Shown here one piece after another: positions 826-22,601 of a stretch of DNA of 64,000 nucleotides. A program made the translations under genes and the position numbers. The notes under the pieces are model-generated. The model ran no database searches. It was not told where the DNA came from and worked only from the letters and a program-made list of their open reading frames with translations. Source of the DNA: Polytrichum commune (lineage: Eukaryota > Streptophyta > Polytrichopsida > Polytrichales > Polytrichaceae); contig OX485808.1 of assembly GCA_950295325.1 (NCBI GenBank), positions 44,476,527 to 44,540,526 on the forward strand, read 5' to 3'. The stretch's first letter is position 1. Every line of letters begins with the position of its first letter.

Positions 826-1546
826 TCAAAAGACATGGTAATCAATGAGACTGAGGAGGCCAGTAATATAGTACCTGTAGGTGTAAAGCCGTTGTAAATC
901 TGTGTACTCACAGTGAACGTCACAACTCTGTCGCTTCGTGTCAGTTTGCCACAACCTCCAATGTGTAAAGAAGGGGGTGTAGTATTTGTCAACCAAACCA
1001 ACATCAAAGTATGGATTTATGTGCAAGTTGGTGGTGCCCGCCCCGTACATGAAGTCTTCAAGTCGTTTTGCACTTTGATTAGAGTCTTCACAGTAGTAGT
1101 TGAACCTAACATATGATAAATTTTCTGGCCAGAGGATAAATTTGGCAACTGCTACTTCACTTCTAAAGTCAGAGGCTGGGTATCTATTCTTGACCCACAC
1201 CCTGTCCAATGTGGCATTTGTAGTTGGTACTGGTCCACTGACTGATGTAGAGGGGTTTGTGGGACTTGGTGTAATTGGGGGACTTGGTGTTGCAGTCGGT
1301 GCTGAGGTGTTCATGGTTGTAGTAGGGGGTCTTGTATTTAAGGTTGGGGGTGGGGGGGGGAGGTGGGGACAACAATGGAGGCATTGGAGGTGGTGAGCAT
1401 GGGTTATAGCTATTTTCACATGGAGATGATGAATATGACATAGTTTGCGGTATGGAGTAGAGAAGGAGGAGACTTTGAAGTGCTATGAAGACTACCCATC
1501 TCCATGTTGGTTGATATACACTATGCATGGTTGCAAGAGCGTGCAT
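826..1546 (-). pseudogene. frameshifted gene for a proline-rich signal-anchored protein (copy 1, long)
   Basis: Minus-strand coding in two frames. From the ATG at 1546 the first frame gives a short N-terminus, one hydrophobic segment (about 18 residues beginning WRWVVFIALQ, a likely signal anchor) and a Pro-rich stretch with PPPMPPLL and SPPPPP. At the G-rich tract near 1346-1372 coding moves to the neighbouring frame, which continues as a Pro/Thr-rich linker and then a folded-looking domain (LDRVWVKNRYP, then FNYYCEDSN and FMYGAGTTNLHINPYFD) to a stop at 826. Short tail, single membrane segment, proline stem and C-terminal domain is the layout of a Golgi type II enzyme or a wall-anchored protein, but the domain was not recognised. 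The shift is either a real disabling mutation or a homopolymer miscall. The truncated second copy has the same frame relation. Confidence 0.45.
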
Positions 1547-3343
1547 GTCGTAAATACCAAATCCTTCAAAAGTTAGTTGTTACTGCTTGGCCAACTTGAA
1601 CATGTCAACAATACAACCAAGTGTCAGATAATGAGAACTGCAATCACACTAAGACTTGCTTCGCATATAAATCTACAAATGTAAGGTATGTACAATTGCT
1701 TGGGCCAATTAAGCCTTAAAGAACGCACATAAGGCCTTCAACTACCCAGTGGTAATGCACAACTCTTGTGCTCATTTGAGAGCCAACAATCTCCTTTACG
1801 TTCGATCCAACTCCAACATCTCTTGGAATGCCAAGTCACTATATGTCAGTCCAGTTCATCATTGTGCTTAAAAGTTTGGCATATCCTTCTTGGGATTGGT
1901 TTGTATCACCGTGTGTACCCTAGAAAGTTTCCCCTCTCCTAGCTTTGGATCCTGGACCCCGATCTCGTATGTTTTTGGACAATGAAATAAAGGCATTCGA
2001 TTCTTTTTACAACAGATAGAACAAAACCAAAAACAATTATATACTTAGGATCTATGTGATTACTTAAAGAGAAAGAGAATCTTACACATTTTCAACACTT
2101 GTGATTTTTGAATCTGAATTCCACTTTAGAAACTTGAATCACAACGTATACAATCCAGCTCATCATACATCTCCCAAGCCGATCCCACAGCCAAAATTGT
2201 GTGTGGAGTTTGAAGTGCTTGCAATAGGGCCATATACCTTACTTACAATAAACTCAGAAGTCACTCTTTGCGTTAGACTGCCCACTGCAACCTGGAGGCT
2301 TCGAACTTCAGAGAATGATCGGTCGGCCGTAGACTTCCTTCAATTCAAGTAGTTGTGCAATCATCATCAGGCCAGCTGCATGTGCCCAGGCCCCATTATC
2401 CATATAGAAGGCAGAACAAGTAGCTATAAATTTCCCACCTGGCTATAAGGTACTGTAAGCATTCAAAAGACTTGCAGAAAACTAAGCTGTCTTTACAACC
2501 TCTACGCATACAGTTGAAACCACCATAGCAACTGAAAAACTTCACGCATTCACTAGACAAGGTAAGTCAATTCTTCCTAGTTCAGTTCCCCCTCTTTGAG
2601 TCTTTTCATCATCCAACAGCAAAGCATACATGACCCATGTAAGTAGATTTCTCTGCCTCTCCCATTGAACTTACAGGAAGTGCAAGCCGATCACAACCTC
2701 GCACTGAAAGTTTCAAGTGTGCGACCTAGTTCACCCACCGCGTACATATCCTTACTTATTGTAGCATGAAGAGGGTCAGGCACTGCCAGGTGATGGAGAC
2801 TCGTGGGAAGGAAGTGCATACCCAGCAGGCCCATATTTAGATTCCAATTTCAATTTGCATAAACAATGGCGACAGGGATCGCATGGCATCTCCTTTGAAT
2901 GGAAAAAATTAAGATCGTCAGTACAATATGGACAAAGGCATCTCCTTTGATTGGAAGGAATGAGGATCGTCGGTACAGACACAATAGGCAAAGGCATCTC
3001 CATCATTTAAAAGTATACAAAGATACTAACAATCATCATGTAAGCTGTAACTTGGGGGCGGACATTAAGTTTCCCCATACGAACTATGGGGCGTGTCAGA
3101 TCCGGGCGGGGCAGCCTCCGGTGAAATTTCTGAACCCGACCGAAAACTGCTGCTCGCCCCGCCCAACTTCGAAAAAAATATTGCCCTTGCATTCTTGAAG
3201 GCTGCTTGACTACAAATTCCATATTGAGTGCACTTCACCTTCAAGGTCTAAAATCCAATATATATGTGCACTTCCAACAAGTAAATAAGCAATTAATTGG
3301 GATTTCATTCCGGAAGTGAAACCATCAATGAAGCACGTAATTA
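1093..3343. repeat. segmental duplication, copy 1
   Basis: Matches 19302-21574 in the same orientation, almost base for base over long stretches; the main differences are small indels and a diverged patch around 3050-3130. It holds the 5' part of the proline-rich gene and about 1.8 kb upstream of it. The identity stops sharply at both ends. The offset between copies is about 18.2 kb. Confidence 0.9.
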
Positions 3344-4389
3344 TCAAAGGTTGTATGCTAGAATGTCTACTCGAATTGCAGCTGTTTTGGAAGCAAAAGG
3401 AAGGTGGACGATTTGTTGAGTGGTTAATAACAATTGCTCAAAATTGAGTCTATGTACACACCCAATTTAGAAATTGCATATCCTGCATTATATAAATCGA
3501 AATTGACTCTTTTCACTTCTATGTTGTTTATTACTTCGTGCCTCACAACTTTCATATATAGTTTATCATTTTGTTTATTCAATGTCATGACATTCTCATT
3601 TTTCAACAATAGAGTGAAACATAGACTCAGTTTTTTGAGTCGGTGTAATCTATGTGTATTATTGACTTCATGTAACCATACTCGTGCCGAATTCAGCAGC
3701 GCAAGCCTTCAAAAACACAATTTCTGGATGATGCTCAATCTCAATCTGCTGTGTGGATCATGTTGCCCAAGTTCTAGATATTCCATCATTTACCTGCCAT
3801 TTCTGATTGTGATTTCAGCAGCATGGTCCACTACAGGTTGTCATTTCTGATTTAGTTTCCGCAGTCATTTGAGGGAGGCTCTTTGGGTGATGAATTCCCC
3901 CTCTTATTTCTTTTCCTTTTCCCCCTTTGCAATCATGAGAACAGACCTTATCCTGGTTGTATTCATAACCTGAGGGATCATGTTGCCCAAGTTCCACAGA
4001 GTTTCAAGTTTAGCACTTACCTGCTATTCCTAATCATAATTTAAGACCCGGTTGTCATTTGGGGAACTCTGCGGGTGATGATCGGGCTCCACTTTCGGTT
4101 TTCATCTTCTGGCATGTTGGTGAAGTGAGGATTATCTTTGCTTTAGTTAGAACTAACCTTATCCTAAACGTAACCATAACCTAGAGTTTTATTTCAGGAC
4201 ACAGGCAATGAAGGGCAAGCATACCTATGCTCCATGAATGTGGGAGTATCAATAATGTGATAGATTCGGTTTATGGATATTAAGCGATGTTGCTGGGACA
4301 CGGTTCCCTCCGGTTGTCTTTGAATGAATCAAAGATGAGGTACGTTGGACAGTATGGTTTAACACGTGCTTTCATGAGCACTTAAAAAC
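3344..4389. other. gene-free spacer downstream of the kinase-ankyrin gene
   Basis: No supported gene. The longest plus-strand frame (about 138 codons, from 3434) looks random in composition and has no family resemblance. The part next to 4390 presumably contains the 3' UTR and polyadenylation site of the minus-strand kinase gene. Confidence 0.4.
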
Positions 4390-7300
4390 TCAGATGTTGG
4401 AAACCCGAGTCATATAGTCCTCCCCATACCTGTCTTTTCGTCCTAGATCAAACTTATGATCTATCAAGAACCGAACTACCTCCTTGTCGTGGAAATCTAA
4501 GGCCTGGTCCATAGCTGTGTAGCCACCGTGGTTCACAAAATTCGGATCCGCGCCCTTTTCTAACAGGAGAGATGCAATATCCAATTTCCGCTCTCTTTCA
4601 CCGGAGGTTGCATCAGGCCTTCTGGAGCAGGCGTGCTGAAGAGGGGTCTCTCCCAGAATCCAATTCGTGCTATCGACTGGAAATCCTCTCTGTAACAAAT
4701 ACTCGACCATATTTATGTGTGCTTCATCTACTGCGCAGTGAAGAATACTATCTCGCGTCTCATCGTCTCTGACGGCGTCCAGATCCACACGGCCAGATCG
4801 CTCATAGGACTTCAACACCTCCACGTTCCCCGTTCTACAGCACGCTAAAGCCAGGTCATATTGATTGTTCCTAAACTCAGGAATTGCGGCCTCTATACTC
4901 TCATCGTCAGTGATGGTACCTTCAGACGCTGAATCCTCTGGTTGCAACTTGAGAATATGCTGGACGACCTCTGTGTTGTGACTTACAGTGGCAACGTCTA
5001 GGACTGATAGGTCACCTTGATTGTTCCTAAACTCAGGAATTGCGGCCTCTATACTCTCATCGTCAGTGATGGTGCCTTCAGACGCTGAATCCTCTGGTTG
5101 CAACTTGAGAATATGCTGGACGACCTCTGTGTTGTGACTTACAGCGGCAACGTCTAGGACTGATATCCGCCCGACGCTATGGGGCGAGTCTAACAAGTTG
5201 GTTGAGGTGCCTTCAGCGAGTAGTAAAATAGCTACGTCCTGAATTGAGTACGTCTCGGAGACGAAATACTGGTCGACGAAAGTCTTCTTGGCTAGAATTA
5301 TGTCGATCATTTCCTTGCTTCCGCCTCTGGCAATGTAGAACATGAGAGCGCGTATAACGTAGAAGGATTCGTTGTAATCCACGAGGTTGAACGCAGCTTC
5401 GAATGCTCTTTCTCTGCCTTTCTGGCATGCCACATGCATTGGCTTGCGATTGGGATAAGAGAGCGCTACTTCCTCAACGTGCTGTCTCAGGATATCTAGA
5501 GAAGGATGAGAATATGAGGCATGCAACAGTTCTAGTGCTAGTGCAACGCCGATCGCGAAGTTCTCCCAAGCCAGATGCATCAGGCTGCTGAACCAGTAAC
5601 CCCGCTCATCGCTCAGGCTTATCACATCAAAGAATGATTTCTCAAAGTACACACCTCCTCGTTGCAAAATGAATTTCACAGTTTCCACCCGGTCCTCAAC
5701 CACAGCGTAATACAACGGGACGTATCGTGGGACATCTTCAAATTCACTCCACTGCAAATTCAGCAATTTCGGATCATCCATGCGCCTTACATCCATGTCC
5801 CTTAAACAGGATCTGATCTTCTCTCCGTTGTCTCCGTCGTAGCATCGTCCGTACCGAGGGGTCGCCGTGTTTATGTAGCTAGCGTCGTCTACTTGATCCA
5901 GAAGGCATCTCAGAAACTCCGTCTTGCCTTTGGCAGCCAGTTGGTGGATTGGTTTCATGAACGGCTCTTCGGCAACCCATGTATCCACGTCTATTCCGAT
6001 GTTTAACAGGAGCTGGAACATATCTAGATTGGAACTACTGCAAGCTCTGTGTATGAGCAGGTGTTGTCTTCTCAACAGGTCCCTCCAAGAGCTCGCAATG
6101 TACCTTAGGGTGTTCAGAGATTCGCTGTCCACGCACAGAAGAGACATGTATGGGATGTCCCTCTCCGCTTGAAACCCCCATGAAGCGCTTCTCTCAACGA
6201 TGTACTGCACACCCGCGACGAAGTCTAGACGACAAAACAGATGTACCAGTAAGGTTCCGTCTTCACTGACGACCATGTTCAACGAGGGGCTCAACACCAG
6301 ATAATCTCGCACCTCGGGGAACCTCTTACGAAATGTGCGCATCTCCTTGTATGTTTCCCCCGACTCAGTGAGCAGATCTTCGCGGTGGCCTGAATACTGG
6401 AGCAGATCGGAATGCACGTCCTCCACCTTATGAAGACACTCCTGCAGCGAAAGCCTAGACTCTCTGACTACTGCACAACAATCATCCACCAGTTCCTTGA
6501 GGCGTTTAATAACGCGCTCAGACACAAACGAATCGCTGCTGGGCGCAACTGCATCGAATTTGACAGGGTAGGCTCCGTCGAACTTGTCCAACATGACATA
6601 ATTCTCATCTGTGAAACTGTCCGGAACCTCACCATCAAGCAGAACCTCAAACAGGAGCATTCCCAGAGAATATACATCCGAAGGGAAGGGGTCTTCCTTC
6701 ACCCTAGGTATCTGTTCTGCATCCCTGACCTCCGGCGCCACCCAGAAGAGCGATCCGCCCACACCTCTACGCAGGTATTTCACGTCCCTCATCTGAAAGC
6801 TCAGTCCAAAGTCGATCAACTTCGGGATGAGTCGCTCGTCGAGCAGAATATTTTCTCCTTTCAAATCTCCATGGTATACACCTTTCTCGTGACACAACAT
6901 CAACGCGAGGACAATCTCTCTGAACACACTCAGCTTCTGAATCCACCACAAAACGTCGCACCGGGTACCATCATCTGTGTCTCTAGAGCGAAGGAACTGA
7001 TTGAGATTGCGTCCCGGGGATATCACTTCCATCACTATGCACACACTCTCCAGCTGCTTGCAATACGTCAGGCCATACACTGCGGCGAAGTTCCTGCAGC
7101 CCCAGAAAACTCTCAAGGTGCGAGCCTCCCTGTCAAGATCCTCTCTCGTGACCTCATCTGACAAAGCGATCCGCTTCACTGCTACCACGAATTCTTCCCC
7201 ATCATCTGCAGGCTCAGTAATTATATCAGAGCCTGACATTGATTTTTCCAGCAACACTCCGTGGAATCTTCCCAGCCTCTTGACTCCCTTGAACTCGGAG

Positions 7301-7923
7301 GTTCTTGCGCTTATGTTGCCCTGAGATATCTCCAACTTCTTCACTCCTTGAAACTCGTTGGCATTCGCGCTCATATCTCTGTGCTCTCTATGACGTAGAA
7401 CAATGCCCTTGTAAATGGAACCGAAACCACCTTTGCCAATGACCTCAAATTTACCACTACCCTGCCCTACTCCTTCGATCAGCTTCAAGCTTTGCAGCTC
7501 GTAAGAGCTTCGATCCTCCACCTGCACGAGCTCCAGGGACATCACATCTAACGGCAAAACCTGCACAATGGTACACTTACTTCATCAATTAAACTCAGAG
7601 TTAACCCCTAAGTGCCCTTGAAGAATAAAATGGAAATGGCACTCCATAGATACTTTCAATTCGCATCCAAACTACCTCATCAAACTACCCTACCCCCTCA
7701 ACCCTAGGATGATTCTTTTCTAAGTTTAATAAGCTATGGAAATGGACCCTTTGCCCTGATGGACAGTAAGGACTCAATCTGCTGTGGATGTATTTGTAAT
7801 CAAAATCCAAGAAAACATGCTTCTACTTCTCCCAGATATTTCTATTTAAGACATGTATGCACGAAGAGCTGATCAAAGCGTCCAAACGAAAGGAAGGACA
7901 TGACTTACTGAGTAGGAATACAT
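4390..7923 (-). CDS. non-RD protein kinase with C-terminal ankyrin repeats (RIPK4/ANKK1-like layout)
   Basis: Two coding exons: 7923-7909 (ATG plus four codons, donor GTAAGT) and 7560-4390 (acceptor TGCAG), phase 0, giving about 1061 residues. Without the small exon, the first in-frame ATG of the large exon is at 7542. Kinase landmarks: glycine loop GKGGFG (about 47-52), VAVK lysine (about 134), HGDLKGEN (HGD replaces HRD, catalytic Asp kept, about 235-237), DFG (about 255-257), APE (about 280-282). All residues needed for phosphotransfer are present, and the missing HRD arginine makes it a non-RD kinase, a class enriched in innate-immune kinases. About 65 extra residues sit between the glycine loop and the VAVK lysine. 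After about residue 430 come degenerate ankyrin repeats, clear at the C-terminus (HCAVDEAHINMVEYLLQRG, LDIASLLLEKGADPNFVNH). Two adjacent 52-codon units are near identical. No signal peptide or membrane segment, so probably cytosolic. Substrate unknown. Confidence 0.85.
4861..5165 (-). repeat. 156-bp in-frame tandem duplication in the ankyrin region
   Basis: Units at 4861-5016 and 5017-5165, with the second slightly incomplete. They differ at only a few bases and encode the same 52-residue block beginning around VLDVA and containing SHNTEVVQHILKLQPEDSAS. The period is an exact multiple of three, so the frame is kept. This is a recent internal duplication inside the kinase-ankyrin gene. Confidence 0.95.
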
Positions 7924-8022
7924 GTTGAATTCCAATGTTCTCAACGGGTATGCGGCTTGTGAGGGCCTCTGGGATCAAAGGACACGCAGTACCGCAGCTT
8001 CAGCATCAAAGGCAGACTGATC
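7924..8022 (-). other. probable 5' UTR part of the kinase-ankyrin start exon
   Basis: On the minus strand a TTTACAG acceptor ends at 8023 and an exon can run from 8022 to the donor at 7909/7908. The first ATG in it (7923) is in frame across the splice with the kinase reading frame and has A at -3. This supports a leader intron upstream of 8022, whose other end was not located. Confidence 0.4.
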
Positions 8023-8438
8023 CTGTAAATTAGATAGAAGGCAGAGTACTTATTAGTACTTGCAGTGAAGTTCATCATCTTACAACTAGATTCCAGTGAC
8101 AAACTTTGCTATCAATCCCACTTTCTAGAGTCTCTCAGAATGGACGGTCTCAAGAAACAAACTCTAATATTTCTCTACTAATTACTCATATCAATCTTTT
8201 GCTTCTGATCGACCGGTTTGCTAAAGAGCTGGTTCGGCAAAGACTTCTCGAAATCGACCTCACACGTGACCGTAGAAGGTTCACAAATCTTTCACGATCT
8301 CCGGTGAATCTAGTCCAACAAGGACAACTCAAACTCCCAATAGCAAGGTAGAATAAAGTCCACACATAATCGCCATTGAACTCTAGAACATTTCGGAGGA
8401 GTTTACGAGAATCAAACCTCAGCCAGAGTCCGCGAAAC

Positions 8439-8600
8439 CCTACGGGCCGGTGGAGAAGTGCTAGGGTAGACAAAATGGGCCATGCCCTGTCCAAGCCCCA
8501 CAGCACGGGTCACCCGGGCTTAAGGACCAGGCCACTCGTGGTGAAGGGCGGGGTATCTGTGGCTAAGCCCAGGGTAGCTCGGTCCGGTTACACGGTTTTT
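8439..8600. repeat. GC-rich repeat, left arm of an inverted pair
   Basis: GC-rich block in AT-rich surroundings. Its reverse complement resembles 11047-11200, sharing CCGTGTAACCGGACC at the inner edge and GGGCATGGCCC further out, with much divergence between. Old inverted-repeat element ends are likely. Confidence 0.6.
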
Positions 8601-9460
8601 TTGGCTCTGTCTGTAGGATAGAGACTATGCATCAACTTCTTCGTTTCAAGAGCAAATTTCTTAACCACTTTGCGTTCACACTTGGACATACTTGTTCTTG
8701 TTATTTTTGGTCCACTTTATTTAATGTGGATGTTAACTATAGTTTATATATATAGAGAGAGAGTGCTATAATTGCTCCCTAAAATGCATTGAAAGAAATC
8801 TAGCTAGTGAACTATAGTTATTTCGGCAGTTCTTGATTATTTATTGGCTCTGTCTGTAGGACAGAGACTATGCATCAACTTCTTCGTTTCAAGAGCAAAT
8901 TTCCTAAACACTTTGTGTTCACACTTGGACGTTACTTGTTCTTGTTATTTTTAGTCCACTGTATTTAATGTGGATGTTATCTATAGTTATATTTATATAT
9001 ATATATATGCATACAAGTGCTCCCTAAAGTGCATTGAAAGAAATCTAGTTAATTATAGTTATTTTGGTAGTTCTTGATTATTTATTTTAAAAAAATTGGT
9101 TGATAAATGAGTAGCTTCAATCCTTGACCCGTATTTGAGAAGAAGGTGCACAAAATCCAAGAAAGGTTTGGTATAGTGAATAGCCATGGATTGGCATGAG
9201 CAAAGTAATTAGCTACAATTGTAGTCTTTCATAGCAAAGGATAGAGCTTCACGGTTCTACCGTTTTCTTGTTTTAAAATTTTCGGGTGATAAATGAGTAG
9301 CTTCAATCCTTGACCCGCATTTGAGAAGAAGGTGCACAAAATCCAAGAGAGGTTTAGTATAGTAAATAGCCATGTATTGACATGAGCAAAGTGGACAACT
9401 ACAATTATAGTCTTTCATAGTAAAGGACAGAGCCTCACGGTTCTACCGTTTTCTTGTTGA
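8601..9460 (+). repeat. dispersed repeat family, tandem copies A and B
   Basis: Copy A (8601-8843) and copy B (8844-9272) each begin TTGGCTCTGTCTGTAGGA and run through the same AT-rich core. B continues into a tail beginning ATAAATGAGTAGCTTCAATC and ending ACGGTTCTACCGTTTTCTTG. The tail is duplicated again at 9283-9460. Other copies lie at 23576-23872 (inverted) and 24388-24799. Small hairpins mark both ends (CTCTGTC/GACAGAG and ACGGT/ACCGT). No coding capacity, so a non-autonomous mobile element of uncertain class. Confidence 0.8.
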
Positions 9461-9477
9461 AACCAACATGCGCATCT

Positions 9478-9536
9478 TTTCATCGGCGAACGGATGCAAT
9501 TTGCCTTTTCATGTTTTCATCCGTTCGCCGATGAAA
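9478..9536. repeat. perfect 19-bp stem hairpin
   Basis: TTTCATCGGCGAACGGATG at 9478-9496 is repeated as its exact reverse complement at 9518-9536, with a 21-nt loop. It begins about 20 bp after the end of the dispersed repeat. It could be a foldback element end or a small-RNA hairpin. Confidence 0.9.
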
Positions 9537-11046
9537 CTCGTTTGAACTTGCCACTGTGGTTCTGTGAGTCTAACCTACTGACGCTGGATGGCTTCTCATT
9601 TTTTCTTCCTTCTCGTGATGAAGTCCTGCAAATCCAACCCTGGCATGAAAATAATATGATCACCGATTCGATTTTCAATAGCAGTCATTCTAAGCAACGA
9701 ATGTGATTTTAATTGCTTATACTTCATGATACATAAGGTACAAATACCCAAACCGGTTAACCACCCTCTACCCATGCACTAGACTGCCATCATAATAGTG
9801 AAGTGCCATTTCTAGAACCGATCATGGCGAGGCGGCAACTTCAATACGTGTACATTTAGTGTAGCCAATGGAAATCAAGTTTAATGTACTCATGAGTTAA
9901 CCAGTTTAGGTGATGTTCTGTATGGAAATGTGGATTATTGTGTTCGGTGTAGGGAGAATCTAGTGAACAAGTAGGGGTTTTGACAACTTTCCACTTTGAA
10001 GAATTGTACAATTTTTTGTGCAAGGCAAAAAAATATGAAACAACTTGCATTCTTCATGAATCCTTCTTGTCTATCTTGGAAAATTATCTCATGATTGTAA
10101 GACCATATCTTCAATGCGAATCACCTTATTTTCACGGGTTATGGTATTTCTACCTTAGATCAATGATTGTAAGATCCGCTAAGAAATTACTTGAAGCAGG
10201 AGTCATTGAACGCAGGGTTTTTGTCCTCCAAGCTCACAGTGACAATAACGTACAAAGTTTGAAATATACTTCTCGTTCGACCTAGACTGCATGCCATTTT
10301 GTGCAGATGCACTTATATGTTATAACCCACAACTCCTGCCATCTCTTCCTTTGTAAGTCCGACTGTCAACTTGCGTAGCTTAAAGAGTAGGAGAGCTTTC
10401 AACTTGATATTGATTACAGAAAAAGCTGAAAGAAATTGAAAGAAGGCGTTCGACTGTTTCCACAGGTTTGGTGAAACAAGGTTTGCCACATTTGTAACAC
10501 AGCAAAGGCAATTGTGGACCCCGAGGTTATGGTCATGATGAAGTCCTGCGAATCCAACCCAAATAATATAAACAGCCATAGACATACTTCAAAAGACAGA
10601 TAATTACACTCCTGCTACGATTCCACATCGACACCCTACTTCCACATTCCACATCGAACCCTACTTCCCGATTCCACATCGACACCCTACTTCCCAATTA
10701 ATTCCACATCGAAACCAGACTTCTCAATTCCAACCAAACAACAGCACAGGACATACTCACCACCTCGCTCGTCAACTCTTGACACACCCACAGCTCGTTC
10801 TTCATCACTCGCACGCTCAGCTCCATGCTCAATCCTCACGCCCGCCACTCCATGCTCAATCCTCGCGCACTCCACTCCACTCCATGCTCAACCTCATGCG
10901 CCTGGAACTTGCTGCCAACAAGAAGGAAGGAAAAACGAAAGAAGCCATCCAGTGTCAGTAGGTTAGACGCGCAGAGCCACAGTAATAAGTTTGTGAGCAA
11001 ATTTCATGAGCGAATGGAGGAAAAAGATGCGCAGGCTGGTTTCAAC

Positions 11047-11200
11047 AAAACCGTGTAACCGGACCAGAGCTGAGCTACCTTAGGCTCGGCCCTTGCATTG
11101 CGGCTACCCCGTCCTTTACTATGGGTGGCCTGTGGGCTATGGACATGGGCAGGGCATGGCCCTTTTGGTCCACCCTAAAGTGCACCGATCCTCGAACGAT
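11047..11200. repeat. GC-rich repeat, right arm of an inverted pair
   Basis: Resembles the reverse complement of 8439-8600, with the same order of matching blocks. A 14-base cytosine run follows at about 11363, in otherwise AT-rich sequence. Confidence 0.55.
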
Positions 11201-12453
11201 AAACCTGGCCCTCGCCTCAATGACAAAGCATACCCTCCTCCAAACCTACGGGCTCCCATTGGTGGACAAAAAGCCCCGTATAATTTGATTGTTGGTTGTA
11301 GAAAAAAGAAGAAAAAAAAGGGGAAAAAAACCATGTTTACGTTGTCTCAAATTAACTAAGTGCCCCCCCCCCCCTAAGAGTAAAGCGGCTCGAAGTTAGT
11401 AATTAAGGATTTCTTATTGCATAACATTGATTAGAAGTATTTATTTTCAAATACAATAGTGCAATAAGATGAGGTGGAGAATATGATTTTTGTGTGGGAC
11501 GTGCGATGGTTGCTTATAAAATGCACCTCGGTTTAACTCCTTAGTTCCTAATCTAGTTACTTTGTACTTAATTATGGATAGAAACATTATCAAAATGGTA
11601 GTAAGTGATTGATGGATGATAGGAGTACAACAATGGGGTACTCTACCAACAATTATAGAAATCTCTACGAGTTTCCCTTAAGATAATCAAAATGATTTTT
11701 TTTAATCTAAAAAAATCAATTTTAGGTCTTCATTCAAATTTTTATGGTTGTGGATTTTTTCTTTCTAAAAATCATTGTTATAAGTATGTTGCATGTTGTT
11801 AATCAATAGGAATAGTGACTTCTACCTTAGTATGGCATTATAACAAGGTTGTTATATAAATCGGAAATTTGTATCAGAGTTATTTGTAAATTGAACACTA
11901 TATTCGTTAATTTGAGACTTTTTCTTGTCTCAAATTAATATATGGACCACAACAACATGAAGTCGCCCAAAACTATATTGTCAACAATCTCAAATATTTC
12001 ACCAGTCCTAGTATCCCAAAATCAATGGTTGCCCAACATAAGCACATTGGGTAGAGCACTCGAAACCAACTTCACCAAAAACAAATCATGTAGAATGATG
12101 ACTATTATTAGCATCGACAATAAAATATAGACACTACGACCTACAAAGCATCATGTATGAAGGCATATTTATTCAAAGTTGCAATTGAGTCCCAAACATA
12201 TTAATAAATTAAAGTTCATGATTGCTGTGAAATATTCTATATGGATATTCATCCAACCCCAAACTATATAGCATTCCTAAGTTCAACCCAAACTCTATCC
12301 CAATTTTAAGGAGCACATATATGACTCATATGTGTCTACTACTGTTACATTTGAACCTATAATCTTGATAGGGTTATTCTACCAACTTCTCATTCAATGT
12401 GGCTTCCTTCTAGTGCAATCCAAGCAAGGTTGTCTTTTGCAAAAGTTATGTAC

Positions 12454-13336
12454 TTTTGGGGGCCATTCACAATTGGGGTTCTACTTTTTGGACAAAGGAC
12501 TTAAGGACTAGGTCGCATTGGATGTTGACATTTGGGGTATTATTTATTTATTACTTAAAATTTGTGCTCTTGTATTCCACTGCCCGAGGGACCACTACCA
12601 TTAGCTAGCCCTAAACCCTAAACCTTAAACCCTAAACCCTACCTACAATTCATACTCCATATTGAGTACACCGACAAAGTTAATTTAGAAGGAATAGGGT
12701 CATCTAAGATATCATTTTTATTCCTTAAAGGACATTTAGGAGTGTTGTCTTAATTGTTCACCTTAGGATCAAGGAATGAAAAGGACAACAAGAATTAATC
12801 GAAACGATCCCAATTTTTTTCCTCACAATCATCGTTCAAGTGTGTACCAACAGAACCAAAAACGTATTGAATACCAATTGCCCAACTTTACATGTGGCAC
12901 CAAACATGGCCAAAAATACATATAATCACGGCCACACCTTAAAGGAATGTCTAGTATTAGAATTGGACAAAAAAAATTATATGAATGGACACATGACACT
13001 TATACCAAGGTACCAAGATGCAAAACAAGAAATAATTGACCACCAATGCACACCTAAATAGCAAAAAATGCCATTGATGTGGCCCAAACAAGTCATTTGA
13101 CCCCTTTTCAAGTTTTATGACTTATCTACTTATTTCATAGGGAATTTCTCTATTGTTGGTGGTTATTTAATAAGAAATAATATCTTTCTTGATATAGCCT
13201 ATGAACTATCTACTTATTTATTTAAAATGTATTGATCAAATAATAGTAAATCATGATAAACGCCGAAATCCACTAGTCCTTAAGTCCTTAAGTCCTTTGT
13301 CCCAAAAGTAGTACCTCAACCGTGAATGCCCCCGAA
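12454..13336. mobile_element. about 880-bp terminal-inverted-repeat element
   Basis: Left arm 12454-12511 and right arm 13273-13336 are inverted copies. Both contain GACAAAGGACTTAAGGACT, CTACTTTT and GGGGGC(C)ATTCAC reading inward. The right arm has one extra TTAAGGAC unit. The interior has no transposase frame but includes a short telomere-like tract. No convincing target duplication was seen. Confidence 0.7.
12609..12642. repeat. interstitial plant telomere repeats
   Basis: Five consecutive heptamers, CCCTAAA, CCCTAAA, CCTTAAA, CCCTAAA, CCCTACC. Three are perfect copies of the plant telomere unit. They lie inside the inverted-repeat element at 12454-13336 and not at a chromosome end. Confidence 0.85.
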
Positions 13337-14299
13337 TGGAAGTCCACATCTAACCATTGGTGATTAAGGGGTGAATTCCGAATGCAAGTGTAGGAGGGTT
13401 GGTTCCCCACTTATAAACTAAGAGGTCTACGGTATAGGGAGCTAACCATTCGCATGGCAGTATGCTAAGGGTTAACGCTCGTGACCCTTCCTAGAATTGA
13501 AAAATAACCATGATAGTTAAGGGGAACTAGCAAGGGTTGTGACAAATTTGGTAGGTGAAAACATTGTCTTCATCCAATTTTGTTCTAACTAGCCCCAACT
13601 TTCATCAAATTGAAATGGAATATTGCCGTCCAAAGACCAATAGGTGCTCTGCACTTATTTAGGTTGGGACACCTAAAAGGGTTTCAAATGGACAATGGAC
13701 TTAGCGTACAGACCAGTTTGGATAAATACAAATACCATCCTTTGTGCATGGAAGCTGCATAAGGGTTCCAAGTCGGAAACAATGACCATCCCCCATAAAC
13801 ATATTGATTTTGCCAAAGACTACTTGGCACGTATTGCAACTGCAAAAAATGACACCGATAATGGATATGAAGCGGAAGATGGTGATGGGGAAACATAACA
13901 TAAGTTGGAATTAATGTGATAAATAGGGGCAGTTCATAAACTTGGTTTTATTGTGGCTACATTCAAATTTATAAGTATATTTGGGATGTGCCATCCAATT
14001 TAATAAGACCCTTATATATGGGATGCACATCCTAGACTCTATAATGACATAAAACCATCTATTTTTGAGATTTCGTTGTTATTTCCATGTGTAGTTCATG
14101 TTTTGATAATGATTTAAAGAATTATTATATTTAAGAATGTGAATATTCTACACGTGCAAATTTATACACTGTCATGTTTCCGATGTTCCCAATGTTCCGT
14201 ATGCTCCCAATGTTTCCTATACTCACAATATCGGCATCTCAAACTATGGATGTATTTTATTTTGAGACTTTGCAAAGTCTCTGATTAATGATTATAGTG

Positions 14300-14805
14300 T
14301 TAAATATGAAATCACTTGGGATGAAATTGTAATATTTTGTACTATCGTTAAAAGTATATTTGATCACAATGCATCCCCTCCAAAAATGCACATTGCTTAT
14401 TGTGACAGTAATAGGCTGGGTTACCATAACCACATGAGCCAACAAGCTGATTCGACTACAACTACCCTAAATCCTAGACTCCTGGATCAAAAACTTAGAT
14501 TCACCAATGAGGTAGTTAGTAATGACCTCCCATGCACATTAGTAGTGACATGTCACATGCATGAACCAAGGGCGTGTAATTGATAGAGTAAATACACATA
14601 TCTGTTGGTGCAAAATCACACCTCTGCATCGAAGTTGATGAGAGATATTCTATACAAAATTATGACTGCTAGGCTTCTAAAACTATCACTGAGCACATGG
14701 TGTACTTAACTAAATCTCAGTAGCAGTAAAAGCTAACAACAAGGTTTATAGTTGAAGTGCTATATCATCAACAATTATATTGCCATTTAAACCACAAATT
14801 CTCAG
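14300..14805. other. spacer downstream of the MLKL-like gene
   Basis: AT-rich, no supported gene. The part next to 14806 should hold the 3' UTR of the minus-strand MLKL-like gene. Confidence 0.35.
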
Positions 14806-16173
14806 CTAGGAGAGCACGTGATTTACCATGTCTTCAGGTGCCAGAAACGAGAGACGGTGAAAAACGGAATCGACTGTGGGTCTCTGCTCAGGATCATCGT
14901 TCATACAATCAAGAGATATCTGCTTGAAAGTATCCAGGAACGGCGCATCTTGTGACTGGACTCCCTGAAAATGGAGCTTGATCTTGTCTTTCTTCCTTGC
15001 CGCCAACATCTGTAGCATTCCAGGGAATTCAGAGAATGGTGAGTCGCCTGTGATGAGCTCCCAAATGATGACACCCAAGGAGAATATGTCACATTTCTCG
15101 TTGTACTCGGGCCGGTCCTTGGGAAGCATTTCGGGAGCAGCCCACCTAGCCTGCTCGATGTCTAACCACTTCTTGTCGCTCGGAGTGCTCTTCACGCGGC
15201 CTTTGAAGAAGCCGAAGATCTTCGGGTGACCATCATCCGTTAGAAAGACATTTGTGCTCCTCATATTCCTGTGGAGGATGCCGACAGAGTGGGCAGAGGC
15301 AAGTCCCAAAGCGATCTCCAGAGCTATCATTCTCTTCAACCTCCAGTCGTCGACACCGTGATCCTCCATCTTCCATTCGTACAGTGTCGTCAACGGCTTG
15401 TTCAGACTCGGTCGCTCCATGACGAGGTACTTCTGAGAGTCAACCGAAAAGGTTCCATGAAACCGGAGAATAGACTCACTATCTGAAAGCCTCTTCAAAA
15501 TGGCCGCATCCTTCTTTTCCTGCTCCGTCGCCACGAGCATGACTTCATTACCTTCAAGCCGCCCGGCTAATATGTAGCCCTCTACCAAGGACTCTCCTAC
15601 ACTCACATTCTCTAGGTGCGTGTCATCCGGAGCCATGCGATCTTCCTTGAGCGCTTTCACATCCTCTTGCATGACCTTCAGTTTGTCCAGGCCATCGTCG
15701 AGCTTATCATCTTGGCCCCTCAGTCTGTCCCGGATGTCGTTAAGCATGATAGTCTGGTGCGTTTGTTGTTCCGTTACGAACCATTTGACGGTTTGGTCCA
15801 ATCTTTGGTTCAGAGAATCGAAAGCTTCCTCATACTTCAATGCTAGAAGCCCTCTGTTGAAAACACTCTTTGACCCATACATTTTTATACATGCTTCGCA
15901 GTCTTGGACGACGATCGCAAACTTCTGATAAGTATCGGGGTACTTTTCTTCAGAGATTGCCGCGATCGGTCCTTTCGATTCGATCTCCTTCTGAATGCGA
16001 TCCATAACACCAGCTGTACTCCTCACTTGTTCCACCAGTTGTTCACATTTCTGCTTGTTGTACCTCGCTGTCAAACCCAGGATCACAACGGACCTAACCA
16101 CCTTTCCAATGTCCCGACTTAGTAGGCCTGCGAATGTATCCAAAAGTAGTTGTTCCGTCTTCTCGGTGACCAT
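14806..16173 (-). CDS. MLKL-like protein: N-terminal helical bundle plus pseudokinase
   Basis: Single exon, 455 residues, ATG at 16173 with A at -3. Residues 1-140 are almost wholly helical and amphipathic, like the HeLo/four-helix-bundle domain of MLKL-type proteins. A charged helical linker follows (about 140-180, a possible brace). Residues about 195-445 are a kinase fold without catalytic residues: no glycine loop, a candidate beta-3 lysine in AAILKRL (about 227), HRN instead of HRD (301-303), and GFF instead of DFG (about 321-323). APE (346-348) and the C-lobe DIFSLGVIIWELITGDSPF are kept. Human MLKL also replaces DFG (with GFE), and known plant MLKLs combine a HeLo domain with a pseudokinase. 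Such proteins oligomerise and act at the plasma membrane in cell death; that role is inferred here. Neighbour of the kinase-ankyrin gene on the same strand, about 6.9 kb away. Confidence 0.85.
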   Translation of the reverse strand: MVTEKTEQLLLDTFAGLLSRDIGKVVRSVVILGLTARYNKQKCEQLVEQVRSTAGVMDRIQKEIESKGPIAAISEEKYPDTYQKFAIVVQDCEACIKMYGSKSVFNRGLLALKYEEAFDSLNQRLDQTVKWFVTEQQTHQTIMLNDIRDRLRGQDDKLDDGLDKLKVMQEDVKALKEDRMAPDDTHLENVSVGESLVEGYILAGRLEGNEVMLVATEQEKKDAAILKRLSDSESILRFHGTFSVDSQKYLVMERPSLNKPLTTLYEWKMEDHGVDDWRLKRMIALEIALGLASAHSVGILHRNMRSTNVFLTDDGHPKIFGFFKGRVKSTPSDKKWLDIEQARWAAPEMLPKDRPEYNEKCDIFSLGVIIWELITGDSPFSEFPGMLQMLAARKKDKIKLHFQGVQSQDAPFLDTFKQISLDCMNDDPEQRPTVDSVFHRLSFLAPEDMVNHVLS

Positions 16174-19301: not shown

Positions 19302-19731
19302 GTAGTAGTTGAACCTAACATATGATAAATATTATGGCCAGAGGATAAATTTAGCAACCACTACTTCACTTCTAAAGTCAGAGGATGCGTACCTATTCTT
19401 GACCCACAGCTTGTCCAATGTGGCAGTTGTAGTTGGTACTAGTCCATTGACTGATGTAGGGGGGTTTGTAGGACTTGGTGTTGCAATTGGTGTCGAGGTG
19501 TTCACGGTTGTAGTAGGGGGTCTTGTATTTAAGGTTTGGGGGGGGGGGGGGGGACAACAATGGAGGCATTGGAGGTGGTGAGCATGGGTTATAGCTATTT
19601 TCACATGGAGATGATGAATATGACATAGTTTGCGGTATGGAGTAGAGAAGGAGGAGACTTTGAAGTGCTATGAAGACTACCCATCTCCATGTTGGTTGAT
19701 ATACACTATGCATGGTTGCAAGAGCGTGCAT
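19302..19731 (-). pseudogene. truncated copy 2 of the proline-rich signal-anchored protein gene
   Basis: Same N-terminus as copy 1 from the ATG at 19731 (signal anchor, PPPMPPLL run), then a 16-base G tract (plus strand, about 19538-19553) where coding again moves to the neighbouring frame. The second frame carries the Pro/Thr linker and LDKLWVKNRY, and ends at the duplication edge after FILWP, so the C-terminal domain of copy 1 is missing. This copy is certainly incomplete. Confidence 0.6.
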
Positions 19732-21574
19732 GTCGTAAATACCAAATCCTTCAAAAGTTAGTTGTTACTGCTTGGCCAACTTGAACATGTCAACAATACA
19801 ACCAAGTGTCAGGTAATGAGAACTGCAATCACACTAAGACTTGCTTCGCATATAAATCTACAAATGTAAGGTATGTACAATTGCTTGGGCCAATTAAGCC
19901 TTAAAGAACGCACATAAGGCCTTCAACTACCCAGTGGTAATGTACAACTCTTGTGCTCATTTGGGAGCCAACAATCTCCTTTACGTTCGATCCAACTCCA
20001 ACATCTCTTGGAATGCCAAGTCACTATATGTCAGTCCAGTTCATCATTGTGCTTAAAAGTTTGGCATATCCTTCTTGGGATTGGTTTGTATCACCGTGTG
20101 TACCCTAGAAAGTTTCCCCTCTCCTAGCTTTGGATCCTGGACCCCGATCTCGTATGTTTTTGGACAATGAAATAAAGGCATTCGATTCTTTTTACAACAG
20201 ATAGAACAAAACCAAAAACAATTATATACTTAGGATCTATGTGATTACTTAAAGAGAAAGAGAATCTTACACATTTTCAACACTTGTGATTTTTGAATCT
20301 GAATTCCACTTTAGAAACTTGAATCACAACGTATACAATCCAGCTCATCATACATCTCCCAAGCCGATCCCACAGCCAAAATTGTGTGTGGAGTTTGAAG
20401 TGCTTGCAATAGGGCCACATACCTTACTTACAATAAACTCAGAAGTCACTCTTTGCGTTAGACTGCCCACTGCAACCTGGAGGCTTCGAACTTCAGAGAA
20501 TGATCGGTCGGCCGTAGACTTCCTTCAATTCAAGTAGTTGTGCAATCATCATCAGGCCAGCTGCATGTGCCCAGGCCCCATTATCCATATAGAAGGCAGA
20601 ACAAGTAGCTATAAATTTCCCACCTGGCTATAAGGTACTGTAAGCATTCAAAAGACTTGCAGAAAACTAAGCTGTCTTTACAACCTCTACGCATACAGTT
20701 GAAACCACCATAGCAACTGAAAAACTTCACGCATTCACTAGACAAGGTAAGTCAATTCTTCCTAGTTCAGTTCCCCCTCTTTGAGTCTTTTCATCATCCA
20801 ACAGCAAAGCATACATGACCCATGTAAGTAGATTTCTCTGCCTCTCCCATTGAACTTACAGGAAGTGCAAGCCGATCACAACCTCGCACTGAAAGTTTCA
20901 AGTGTGCGACCTAGTTCACCCACCGCGTACATATGCTTACTTATTGTAGCATGAAGACTGCCAGGTGATGGAGACTCGTGGGAAGGAAGTGCATACCCAG
21001 CAGGCCCATATTTCAATTCCAATTTCAATTTGCATAAACAATGGTGACAGGAATCGCCTGGCATCTTCTTTGAGTGGAAAAAATTAAGATCGTCAGTACA
21101 ATATGGACAAAGGCATCACCTTTGATTGGAAGGAATGAGGATCGTCGGTACAGACACAATAGGCAAAGGCATCTCCATCATTTAAAAGTATACAAAGAAA
21201 CTAACAATCATCATGTAAGCCGTAACCCACTGCATCATCGTCACGTCACTCAAAGAAAACAAAGTAACTTAGACAGATGATGATTGGCGGACGTTAAAGT
21301 AACACCTACGAACTTATTTGGGCTGGGGAAGCCTTCCAGGGTTCTTTTTAAAAATTTTGAACCTGACCACGAAACTGCTGTCCACCCCGCCCAACTTTGA
21401 AAAAAATATTGTCCTTGCATTCTTGAAGGCCGCTTGACTACAAATCCCATATTGAGTGCACTTCACCTTCAAGGTCTAGAATCCAATATATATATGCACT
21501 GCCAATTAGTAGATATTAAGCAATTAATTGGGATTTCATTCCGGAAGTGAAACCATCAATGAAGCATGTAATTA
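19302..21574. repeat. segmental duplication, copy 2
   Basis: Direct copy of 1093-3343. The left edge cuts the proline-rich gene in mid-domain, which shows that copy 1 is the more complete locus. Near 21210-21330 the copies differ, then realign through about 21574, after which the sequences are unrelated. No primer-binding site or polypurine tract was recognised at the edges. Confidence 0.9.
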
Positions 21575-22601
21575 ACTTGGAGGTCAAAACCATTACAAAA
21601 TCCTCATTAACATTGAGGTTATAATTTTTGTGACTTCCCATTTAAAAGTGTCTTTCTCATTCTAAAATGAAACTTAGATTAATGAATATAACCCATCATT
21701 TAAGAGGAATATATAGAATATATCAAATTACTCAAGAAAACTGAAAGATCACAACATGTAATAGGTTGGACTTGGAAACACCAAGATCTTGAACGATTAT
21801 GTCAAAAACTCTCCCCGGACATTGTTTTACTATCCACTAGGAGGGTCCATTGATGTTGGATTGCTAGGTGAGAATCACCACAAAATTAGGCTTAATATTA
21901 ATGAGGATCTTCTATTAAATGAAAGTGTTGTCCCCCTTATGTGGATAACTTCTTACACCACCTCGTTCAACAGATAGATCCCCAAATAAGCATAGTAATG
22001 CCAAAGTTGGTGCTCTTCTAAAAGCATACTTGCATCCTTCTTACACCATTACTATTAATGACCAAAGTGGTGCTATTTTGTACTTAATGTCGCATACGAT
22101 TAATTGCTTTTAATGATGACTTATGCGATGACATTGTTGCACTCACTTGTTGACAACTTAAGAATGGAAAATAAGTGTTGCCAAAAGGAAGGTGTTACCT
22201 TAAAGCCTCATTTTCTTAGCAATGTTTCAAAAATAGTGCATTTTTGAGAGCTTCAAATGTGTGATGGAGGTACAGAGCGTTGGTTATTGTCAAGGTTGCC
22301 TTTTGGTCCAAGGGTCTCTCAACCTTAGACGGTGTAACCCGCTACTTGACCAGTTGCATGATTATCATGCCTTGGGTAAATTAGAAAATTTTATGGAAAC
22401 CTAAAACATGAATCCAAGTTGTTTGTCTATAAACTTGCCTTATGAAGTGAGCTAGTTGAATCCATGTCCCTAAAGGTGAGGAGAATTATTTCTTTCTGGG
22501 TAACCTTTGAAGTCATCTAGTTCAAAGGTTATATAGATGCATCCACCAAGGGTAATCTTATGTTTCTTATCCCCTTTGTAATTTCAATATACATATATCA
22601 T
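21575..22601. other. decayed transposon sequence, no gene
   Basis: AT-rich with no long frame. The stretch about 21710-21830 is a diverged relative of 35220-35340 (both contain TATAGAATATA.., ACATGTAA..GGTTGGA and CCCGG(A/G)CATTG in order), so this is part of a dispersed repeat. Confidence 0.4.

What the first reader, a model, noticed from the sequence alone, without database searches (positions are those of the whole stretch)
4390..16173. RIPK-like kinase-ankyrin gene beside an MLKL-like gene: a candidate plant necroptosis-type module
Seen: two same-strand genes about 6.9 kb apart with no other intact gene between them, one a catalytically complete kinase with C-terminal ankyrins, the other a helical bundle plus pseudokinase. 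Known: in animals RIPK-family kinases activate MLKL, RIPK4/ANKK1 have kinase-ankyrin architecture, and plants have HeLo-pseudokinase MLKLs. Inferred: the pair could be activator and executioner. Shared strand and proximity are suggestive but not proof.
Basis: partly seen in the sequence, partly recalled or inferred. Interest (0 to 1): 0.75.

Follow-up and report, generated by a model that had tools for sequence, protein, structure and literature searches.

The report
Linked MLKL-like and kinase-ankyrin plant genes
In this plant genome a gene resembling an animal cell-death protein sits next to a gene for a probably active kinase with ankyrin repeats, and the only other close copies found of both genes also sit side by side on another chromosome, which makes a working partnership plausible but unproven.

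Summary
Window 4390-7581(-) encodes a 1063-aa frame with a motif-complete, non-RD (HGD) kinase and C-terminal ankyrin repeats. Window 14806-16173(-) encodes 455 aa: an MLKL_N (HeLo-type) helical domain plus a pseudokinase (no beta3 Lys, HRN for HRD, GFF for DFG).

New: within the searches' sensitivity each gene has one close relative in the 408-Mb genome, and those relatives are also neighbours, 17.1 kb apart on C7, divergently oriented, with a piggyBac-type transposase frame between them. A 114-kb C6 block and a 100-kb C7 block share no other recognised gene, and six flanking genes searched genome-wide have no partner near the other pair.

Against: retained linkage is not function. The kinase is RIPK-like in architecture only (no strict RHIM tetrad; nearest solved kinases are MAP4K, Pto, MST and Raf). 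The pseudokinase gene lacks the DUF1221 domain of Arabidopsis MLKLs. The C7 MLKL-like copy is split by a frame change. Synonymous divergence differs between the two gene pairs. Expression, interaction and other plants could not be examined. A sensor-kinase/HeLo-effector pair is my leading reading (0.45), not a demonstrated one.

The parts
7909..7923 (-). predicted first coding exon of the kinase-ankyrin gene (5 codons)
   Evidence: donor and acceptor consensus in frame; sequence inference only
4390..7560 (-). main exon of the kinase-ankyrin gene, stop at 4390-4392 (open frame extends to 7581)
6427..7449 (-). protein kinase domain with intact VAVK, HGDLK (non-RD), DFG, APE; about 70-residue insert between glycine loop and VAVK
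   Evidence: Pkinase 4.6e-29 over residues 132-385; motifs
4423..4749 (-). C-terminal ankyrin repeats (best Pfam stretches, residues 945-1053); further repeat-like helical sequence lies between the kinase and this part
   Evidence: Ank_2, Ank_3, Ank_4, Ank_5
4853..5165 (-). 157-bp tandem duplication inside the ankyrin-side coding sequence, 97.5% identical
14806..16173 (-). MLKL-like gene, 455 aa, read as a single exon
15685..16065 (-). MLKL_N / HeLo-type helical domain
   Evidence: PF22215 4.3e-7 over residues 37-163
14854..15516 (-). pseudokinase domain; HRN at residue 301, GFF at residue 321, loop Ser329 and Ser332 kept in the C7 copy
   Evidence: Pkinase 5.5e-27; motifs

Best explanation
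The two genes form an old, co-retained pair that works as a sensor kinase with a HeLo-type effector. Shown: the domain anatomy; the presence or absence of catalytic motifs; and linkage of the two families at both places where they were found in this genome. Inferred: the ankyrin array senses a pathogen- or damage-derived ligand or binds a client; that releases or activates the non-RD kinase; the kinase engages the pseudokinase and changes its state by binding it or by phosphorylating its activation loop (Ser329 and Ser332 are kept in both copies); the pseudokinase lets go of the N-terminal HeLo domain, which oligomerises at a membrane and harms the cell or starts a local defence signal. It would work like RIPK3-MLKL without being homologous to it at the kinase end.
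For: Close relatives of both genes occur once more in the genome and are again neighbours: C7:41445335-41446739(-) and C7:41463861-41467406(+), 17,121 bp between frames; the reverse search with the C7 kinase finds only the window gene as a close relative. If the second pair had been placed independently and uniformly, the chance of lying within 17.3 kb is about 8.5e-5; a joint duplication removes that argument for coincidence, but the pair then stayed together through a change of relative orientation, transposon insertion and large divergence (kinase 51%, pseudokinase 65%, HeLo plus brace 41% identity). No other recognised gene is shared by the compared blocks, and none of six flanking genes or families has a partner near the other pair. 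Motif status is the same in both copies: active kinase, HRN/GFF pseudokinase. The kinase domains are under constraint (dN 0.39 against dS about 2.7). The same genome holds single frames that fuse a HeLo domain, a pseudokinase-like domain and a second kinase (L017, L023, L024; second kinase motif-complete in L017 and L024), so the same three parts are also found joined. In human cells RIPK3 holds unphosphorylated MLKL in a kinase-pseudokinase complex (PMC8608796, abstract and one section).
Against: No binding, phosphorylation, expression or cell-death data. Linkage may be passive. The C7 MLKL-like gene has its HeLo and pseudokinase parts in different frames (2-nt length difference; assembly error not excluded), so that copy may be broken or may make a HeLo-only product. 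Synonymous differences at fourfold sites of conserved residues are fewer in the MLKL pair (37 of 87) than in the kinase-ankyrin pair (64 of 102; Fisher p=0.008), which does not fit one simple duplication event unless rates differ or conversion occurred. The tree gives no sign that the window kinase is related to the second kinase of the fused proteins, or the window pseudokinase to their first kinase; it is short and has long branches. A phosphomimetic AtMLKL reportedly did not kill Arabidopsis cells (PMC11932488, passage citing earlier work).
Confidence: 0.45

Rival explanations
1. The two genes are neighbours only because an old linked pair was duplicated (segmental or whole-genome event with loss of the other duplicates); they do unrelated jobs and linkage was never broken by chance.
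For: Both copies of each family are sisters with full support, as a joint duplication would give. Orientation, spacing and flanks are not kept, so nothing shows selection for a fixed arrangement. One C7 gene is split.
Against: No other recognised gene is shared in 114 kb against 100 kb, and six flanking genes or families searched give no partner near the other pair; where these have paralogs the best are on C5, C2/C3, C1 or in a local cluster. The two gene pairs differ in synonymous divergence.
Confidence: 0.35
2. Both belong to a loosely clustered immune neighbourhood: the kinase-ankyrin protein acts as a sensor, decoy or guard in its own pathway and the HeLo pseudokinase is a separate resistance or signalling protein, as Pm13-type HeLo-kinases are in wheat.
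For: HeLo-kinases are a sizeable family: 32 MLKL_N matches at E<=1, 8 over the cut-off; 9 of the 15 further loci that I read encode HeLo- or DUF1221-type plus kinase proteins. Pm13, a MLKL_NTD protein with a motif-complete kinase, gives mildew resistance (PMC10951266, passages). The variable ankyrin part is only 25% identical between copies and holds a recent tandem duplication.
Against: Does not by itself explain why precisely these two families, each found twice, are paired at both loci.
Confidence: 0.15
3. The kinase-ankyrin gene's neighbour is a HeLo pseudokinase that is a scaffold or trafficking factor and does not kill; the HeLo name misleads.
For: U-box/ARM proteins in this genome also match MLKL_N at their N-termini (L019, L021), so the model is not specific to killers. 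The first helix is not unusually amphipathic (154 and 188 of 2000 shuffles as high). No solved structure matches the HeLo part by sequence at E<=10, and single-sequence folds were too poor to use.
Against: MLKL_N plus pseudokinase is the MLKL layout, and the C7 HeLo part matches at 1.1e-11.
Confidence: 0.05

Closest known systems
Animal RIPK3-MLKL necroptosis pair
   Same: An active kinase and a HeLo-pseudokinase protein; DFG replaced by G-F-x (human MLKL GFE is recalled); Ser/Thr in the pseudokinase loop
   Different: No strict RHIM tetrad in the window proteins; the kinase has ankyrins; no special kinase-domain similarity to RIPK3 (row 55 of 60); genes here are linked
RIPK4 / ANKK1 (animal kinase-ankyrin proteins)
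   Same: N-terminal kinase, C-terminal ankyrins (PMC9573974, passages)
   Different: Non-RD HGD motif, long N-lobe insert, no RIPK4 or ANKK1 among the 60 structure hits shown (whether such structures are held was not checked); not known to activate MLKL (recalled)
Plant AtMLKL family (DUF1221 type)
   Same: N-terminal HeLo-type bundle plus C-terminal pseudokinase
   Different: Window protein does not match DUF1221 at E<=1, and the 15 DUF1221 matches in the genome lie elsewhere; family described as conserved across seed plants (PMC9950082, passages)
Wheat Pm13 and other MLKL_NTD-kinase proteins
   Same: MLKL_NTD fused to a kinase-fold domain
   Different: Pm13 keeps catalytic residues (PMC10951266, passages); the window protein has lost three key motifs
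HeLo + pseudokinase-like + second kinase frames in this genome (L017, L023, L024)
   Same: The three kinds of part in one polypeptide
   Different: Single gene, no ankyrins seen, and not sister to the window domains in a 16-domain tree

Membership tests
MLKL-like (HeLo/MLKL_N + pseudokinase) | MLKL_N / HeLo-type N-terminal bundle | tested here: met
   PF22215 4.3e-7 (window), 1.1e-11 (C7 copy), both over cut-off; fold itself not confirmed
MLKL-like (HeLo/MLKL_N + pseudokinase) | C-terminal kinase fold lacking catalytic residues | tested here: met
   Pkinase 5.5e-27 with no beta3 Lys, HRN, GFF; same in C7 copy
MLKL-like (HeLo/MLKL_N + pseudokinase) | causes membrane damage or cell death when activated | not testable with these tools
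   needs expression assay
Plant AtMLKL family (DUF1221) | DUF1221 N-terminal domain (PF06760) | tested here: not met
   absent from the window protein's hits at E<=1; none of 15 genome matches at this locus
RIP kinase family | kinase domain closest to RIPKs | tested here: not met
   against solved structures only: TNIK, MINK, MAP4K4, Pto, MST and Raf rank above; RIPK3 first at row 55 of 60 shown, 1632 matched; no phylogeny with RIPKs was built
RIP kinase family | RHIM (RIPK1/RIPK3 only) | tested here: not met
   no [IV]Q[VIL]G in five sequences; one relaxed match LNIG at residue 526 of the kinase frame
RIP kinase family | RIPK4/ANKK1 layout, kinase then ankyrins | tested here: met
RIPK3-MLKL type activator-executioner pair | kinase binds and phosphorylates the pseudokinase | not testable with these tools
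   loop Ser329 and Ser332 kept in both copies but no biochemical data
   same genome only: C6 and C7 pairs; other species not available

The most novel reading that the evidence does not exclude
Some plants carry a two-gene necroptosis-like cassette that arose independently of animal RIPK3-MLKL: an ankyrin-sensing non-RD kinase that directly licenses a HeLo pseudokinase, kept together as a unit at two chromosomal sites, with a parallel one-gene version (HeLo-pseudokinase-kinase fusions) in the same genome. It would supply the missing upstream kinase for a plant MLKL-type protein.
Probability: 0.25. Interest if true: 0.85.

Novelty: new variant of a known kind. Interest (0 to 1): 0.55.

Why it matters
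The passages that I read describe plant MLKL-type proteins but name no kinase that activates them. A kinase gene that stays linked to a HeLo-pseudokinase gene at both sites where the two families were found is a concrete candidate, testable by co-expression in leaves. If true, it would show that an activating kinase and a HeLo pseudokinase were paired independently in plants and animals, and would give a genomic signature (linked or fused kinase, pseudokinase and HeLo) for finding more such modules.

Tried and rejected
RIPK kinship by sequence: solved-structure searches with the whole kinase frame, its kinase part and the MLKL-like protein. The MLKL-like query ranks OSR1, MAP3K12, B-Raf and TNNI3K first; MLKL first appears at row 22 of 60. 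The HeLo part alone gives no solved-structure hit at E<=10.

Structure: AlphaFold2 on the single sequence gave mean pLDDT 36.5 (whole protein) and 50.0 (residues 1-145, five helices). Both too poor, so no fold search was run.

Block duplication of C6 and C7: not supported. Window genes Tic22 and 59338-60279 gave no second match; the RING gene's best paralog is on C5, with weak matches on C7 at 1.4, 6.5 and 18.1 Mb; C7's cation transporter pairs with C2/C3 and its GH81 gene with C1; a Cys-rich cluster left of the window has its best matches in its own cluster. The comparison also lists many short DNA and ORF matches outside the pair, up to 96.5% over 662 bp; I took these as repeats, but only one, window 13336-13544, was tested and proved repetitive. 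Homology of these stretches therefore remains possible, and larger blocks were not compared.

Fusion argument: a tree of 16 kinase domains did not group the window kinase with the second kinase of the fused frames, nor the window pseudokinase with their first kinase; the program warned that long branches meet. I keep the fused frames as a parallel, not as proof.

Amphipathic first helix: not above shuffles in a convincing way (154 and 188 of 2000).

Organism: one paper search for a seven-chromosome Polytrichum assembly found nothing. The genome is a plant by its Tic22 gene; which plant is unknown to me.

Literature: searches for plant MLKL with RIPK, moss, Physcomitrium, ankyrin, tandem kinase and kinase-ankyrin terms listed no paper on a linked kinase-ankyrin/MLKL pair. 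The library lacks most subscription papers, including the primary plant MLKL paper as far as I could see.
Full report
What is there. The window is C6:44476527-44540526 of a 408-Mb plant genome in 64 contigs; the plant identity rests on a Tic22 gene in the window. On the minus strand, window 4390-7581 is an open frame of 1063 aa, and window 14806-16173 an ATG-to-stop frame of 455 aa. The first has a kinase domain (Pkinase 4.6e-29) and ankyrin repeats towards the C-terminus; the second has MLKL_N (4.3e-7) and a kinase-fold domain (5.5e-27). Four gap ORFs that I scanned have no Pfam domain.

Catalytic status. The kinase keeps VAVK, HGDLK, DFG and APE, so it should be active, but of the non-RD type; the C7 relative keeps the same motifs. 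The MLKL-like domain has no beta3 lysine, HRN in place of HRD and GFF in place of DFG, again shared with its C7 relative. So each protein's character predates the duplication. I read 15 further loci: 11 of the 30 other MLKL_N matches (all 6 of those over the cut-off), 2 of 15 DUF1221 matches, and 2 next-best kinase hits. Nine encode a HeLo- or DUF1221-type domain plus a kinase; of their 12 kinase domains some have lost one or two motifs, but by reading none lacks all three. The other six are two U-box/ARM frames, one short RPW8/CC-like frame, one ARM-repeat frame, and two Raf-like kinase loci without a HeLo domain that I could see (labels by reading, not by search).

The pair recurs. A search with the MLKL-like protein finds one close relative, C7:41445359-41446670 (pieces at 66% and 42% identity); the next match is 39% over 110 residues. 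A search with the kinase-ankyrin protein finds one close relative, C7:41463999-41467370 (51% over the kinase side); the next is 30%. The reverse search with the C7 kinase agrees. Only part of the candidates is scored in such searches, so the counts are lower bounds. The two relatives are 17,121 bp apart between frames, on opposite strands, head to head. Between them lie a piggyBac-type transposase frame (DDE_Tnp_1_7, 3.9e-71) and a weak B3-like match below cut-off. On C6 the two genes are in tandem, so orientation has changed.

Is it a large duplicated block? I compared all ORFs of at least 40 aa in C6:44446527-44560526 with those of C7:41408001-41508000. Apart from the pair, the matches are short; I could not recognise a gene among them, and one tested is a genome-wide repeat. 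Six flanking genes or families searched genome-wide have no partner near the other pair. Under independent uniform placement the second pair would lie within 17.3 kb with a chance near 8.5e-5. The simplest alternative is one duplication of an already linked pair, so the figure shows that linkage is not a new accident of this locus, not that it is functional.

Divergence. Identity between the copies: kinase 0.51, segment after the kinase 0.54, variable ankyrin part 0.25, last ankyrins 0.39, HeLo plus brace 0.41, pseudokinase 0.65. Kinase dN is 0.39 with dS about 2.7 (near saturation); pseudokinase dN 0.26, dS 1.1. At fourfold sites of conserved residues, 37 of 87 differ in the MLKL pair and 64 of 102 in the kinase-ankyrin pair (residues 14-580 only; p=0.008); at all third positions of conserved codons, 86 of 229 and 140 of 260 (p=0.0004). 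Either the MLKL copies separated later, or conversion or gene-specific rates are at work. If they truly separated later, a second MLKL copy came to lie by the second kinase, which would favour selection for linkage; I cannot decide. The ankyrin part also has a recent 157-bp tandem duplication, as a fast-changing sensing part might.

The C7 copy. Its HeLo part and its pseudokinase part are each open, but in different frames, with 2 nt fewer than C6 at the junction. It may be newly broken, an assembly error, or a source of a HeLo-only product. This counts against a simple picture of two working cassettes.

Mechanism. My leading reading is a sensor kinase acting on a HeLo pseudokinase. Anatomy and linkage are shown; sensing, activation, binding, phosphorylation and membrane action are inferred. 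In human cells RIPK3 binds unphosphorylated MLKL mainly by the C-lobes (PMC8608796, abstract and one section), so the pairing of kinase and pseudokinase domains matters there as much as the phosphate. A report on sea cucumber MLKL says activation there is by cleavage and not by RIPK3, and cites that a phosphomimetic AtMLKL did not kill (PMC11932488, passages); so phosphorylation should not be assumed.

Relation to known kinds. It is MLKL-like by layout and Pfam model. It is not a DUF1221-type plant MLKL by the test. MLKL-class proteins have been listed for non-seed plants by an NLR survey (PMC11218826, passages), and MLKL_NTD-kinases are many in grasses (PMC10951266, passages), so the class is known. 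The kinase is not a RIPK by the evidence here: no strict RHIM and no special similarity. What is new is the recurrent linkage with a kinase-ankyrin gene, and beside it the three HeLo/pseudokinase/kinase fusion frames. My paper searches listed no report of such a pair, in an open-access library only.

Verdict. Observation confirmed; interpretation partly supported and strengthened in one respect (recurrence), weakened in others (RIPK kinship, same strand, intactness of the second copy).

Noticed in passing
window 1093-3345 and 19302-21576: A direct repeat of about 2.2 kb, 96.4% identical over 1959 bp with a long nearly identical core, flanks the gene pair on both sides. Origin (local duplication, conversion or mobile element) not settled.
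   Followed up: partly
L017, L023, L024: Single frames with a HeLo-type N-terminus, a pseudokinase-like domain (HGELK, D/N-F-H) and a second kinase domain.
   Followed up: partly
L003:9442-9795 (C7:41467442-41467795): A kinase C-lobe fragment (PK_Tyr_Ser-Thr 8.9e-13) lies just downstream of the C7 kinase-ankyrin stop.
   Followed up: no
C7:41488322-41489710 and C1:52954703-52956091: A GH81 glycosyl hydrolase frame has a 98% identical copy on another chromosome, a far younger duplication than the gene pair.
   Followed up: no
C6:44467869-44472993: Tandem cluster of a Cys-rich family (motif ECPHC by reading) just left of the window, several copies in about 5 kb.
   Followed up: no
L019, L021: U-box/ARM-repeat frames match MLKL_N at their N-termini, so this helical domain type is not limited to kinases here.
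   Followed up: no
window 13336-13544: A repeat of about 210 bp, high in number in the genome (40 scored matches of 2460 candidates).
   Followed up: partly
C5:49.25-49.40 Mb: Cluster of weak DUF1221 matches in frames of 281-596 aa; the one read, L026, carries a kinase domain with GFG in place of DFG.
   Followed up: partly
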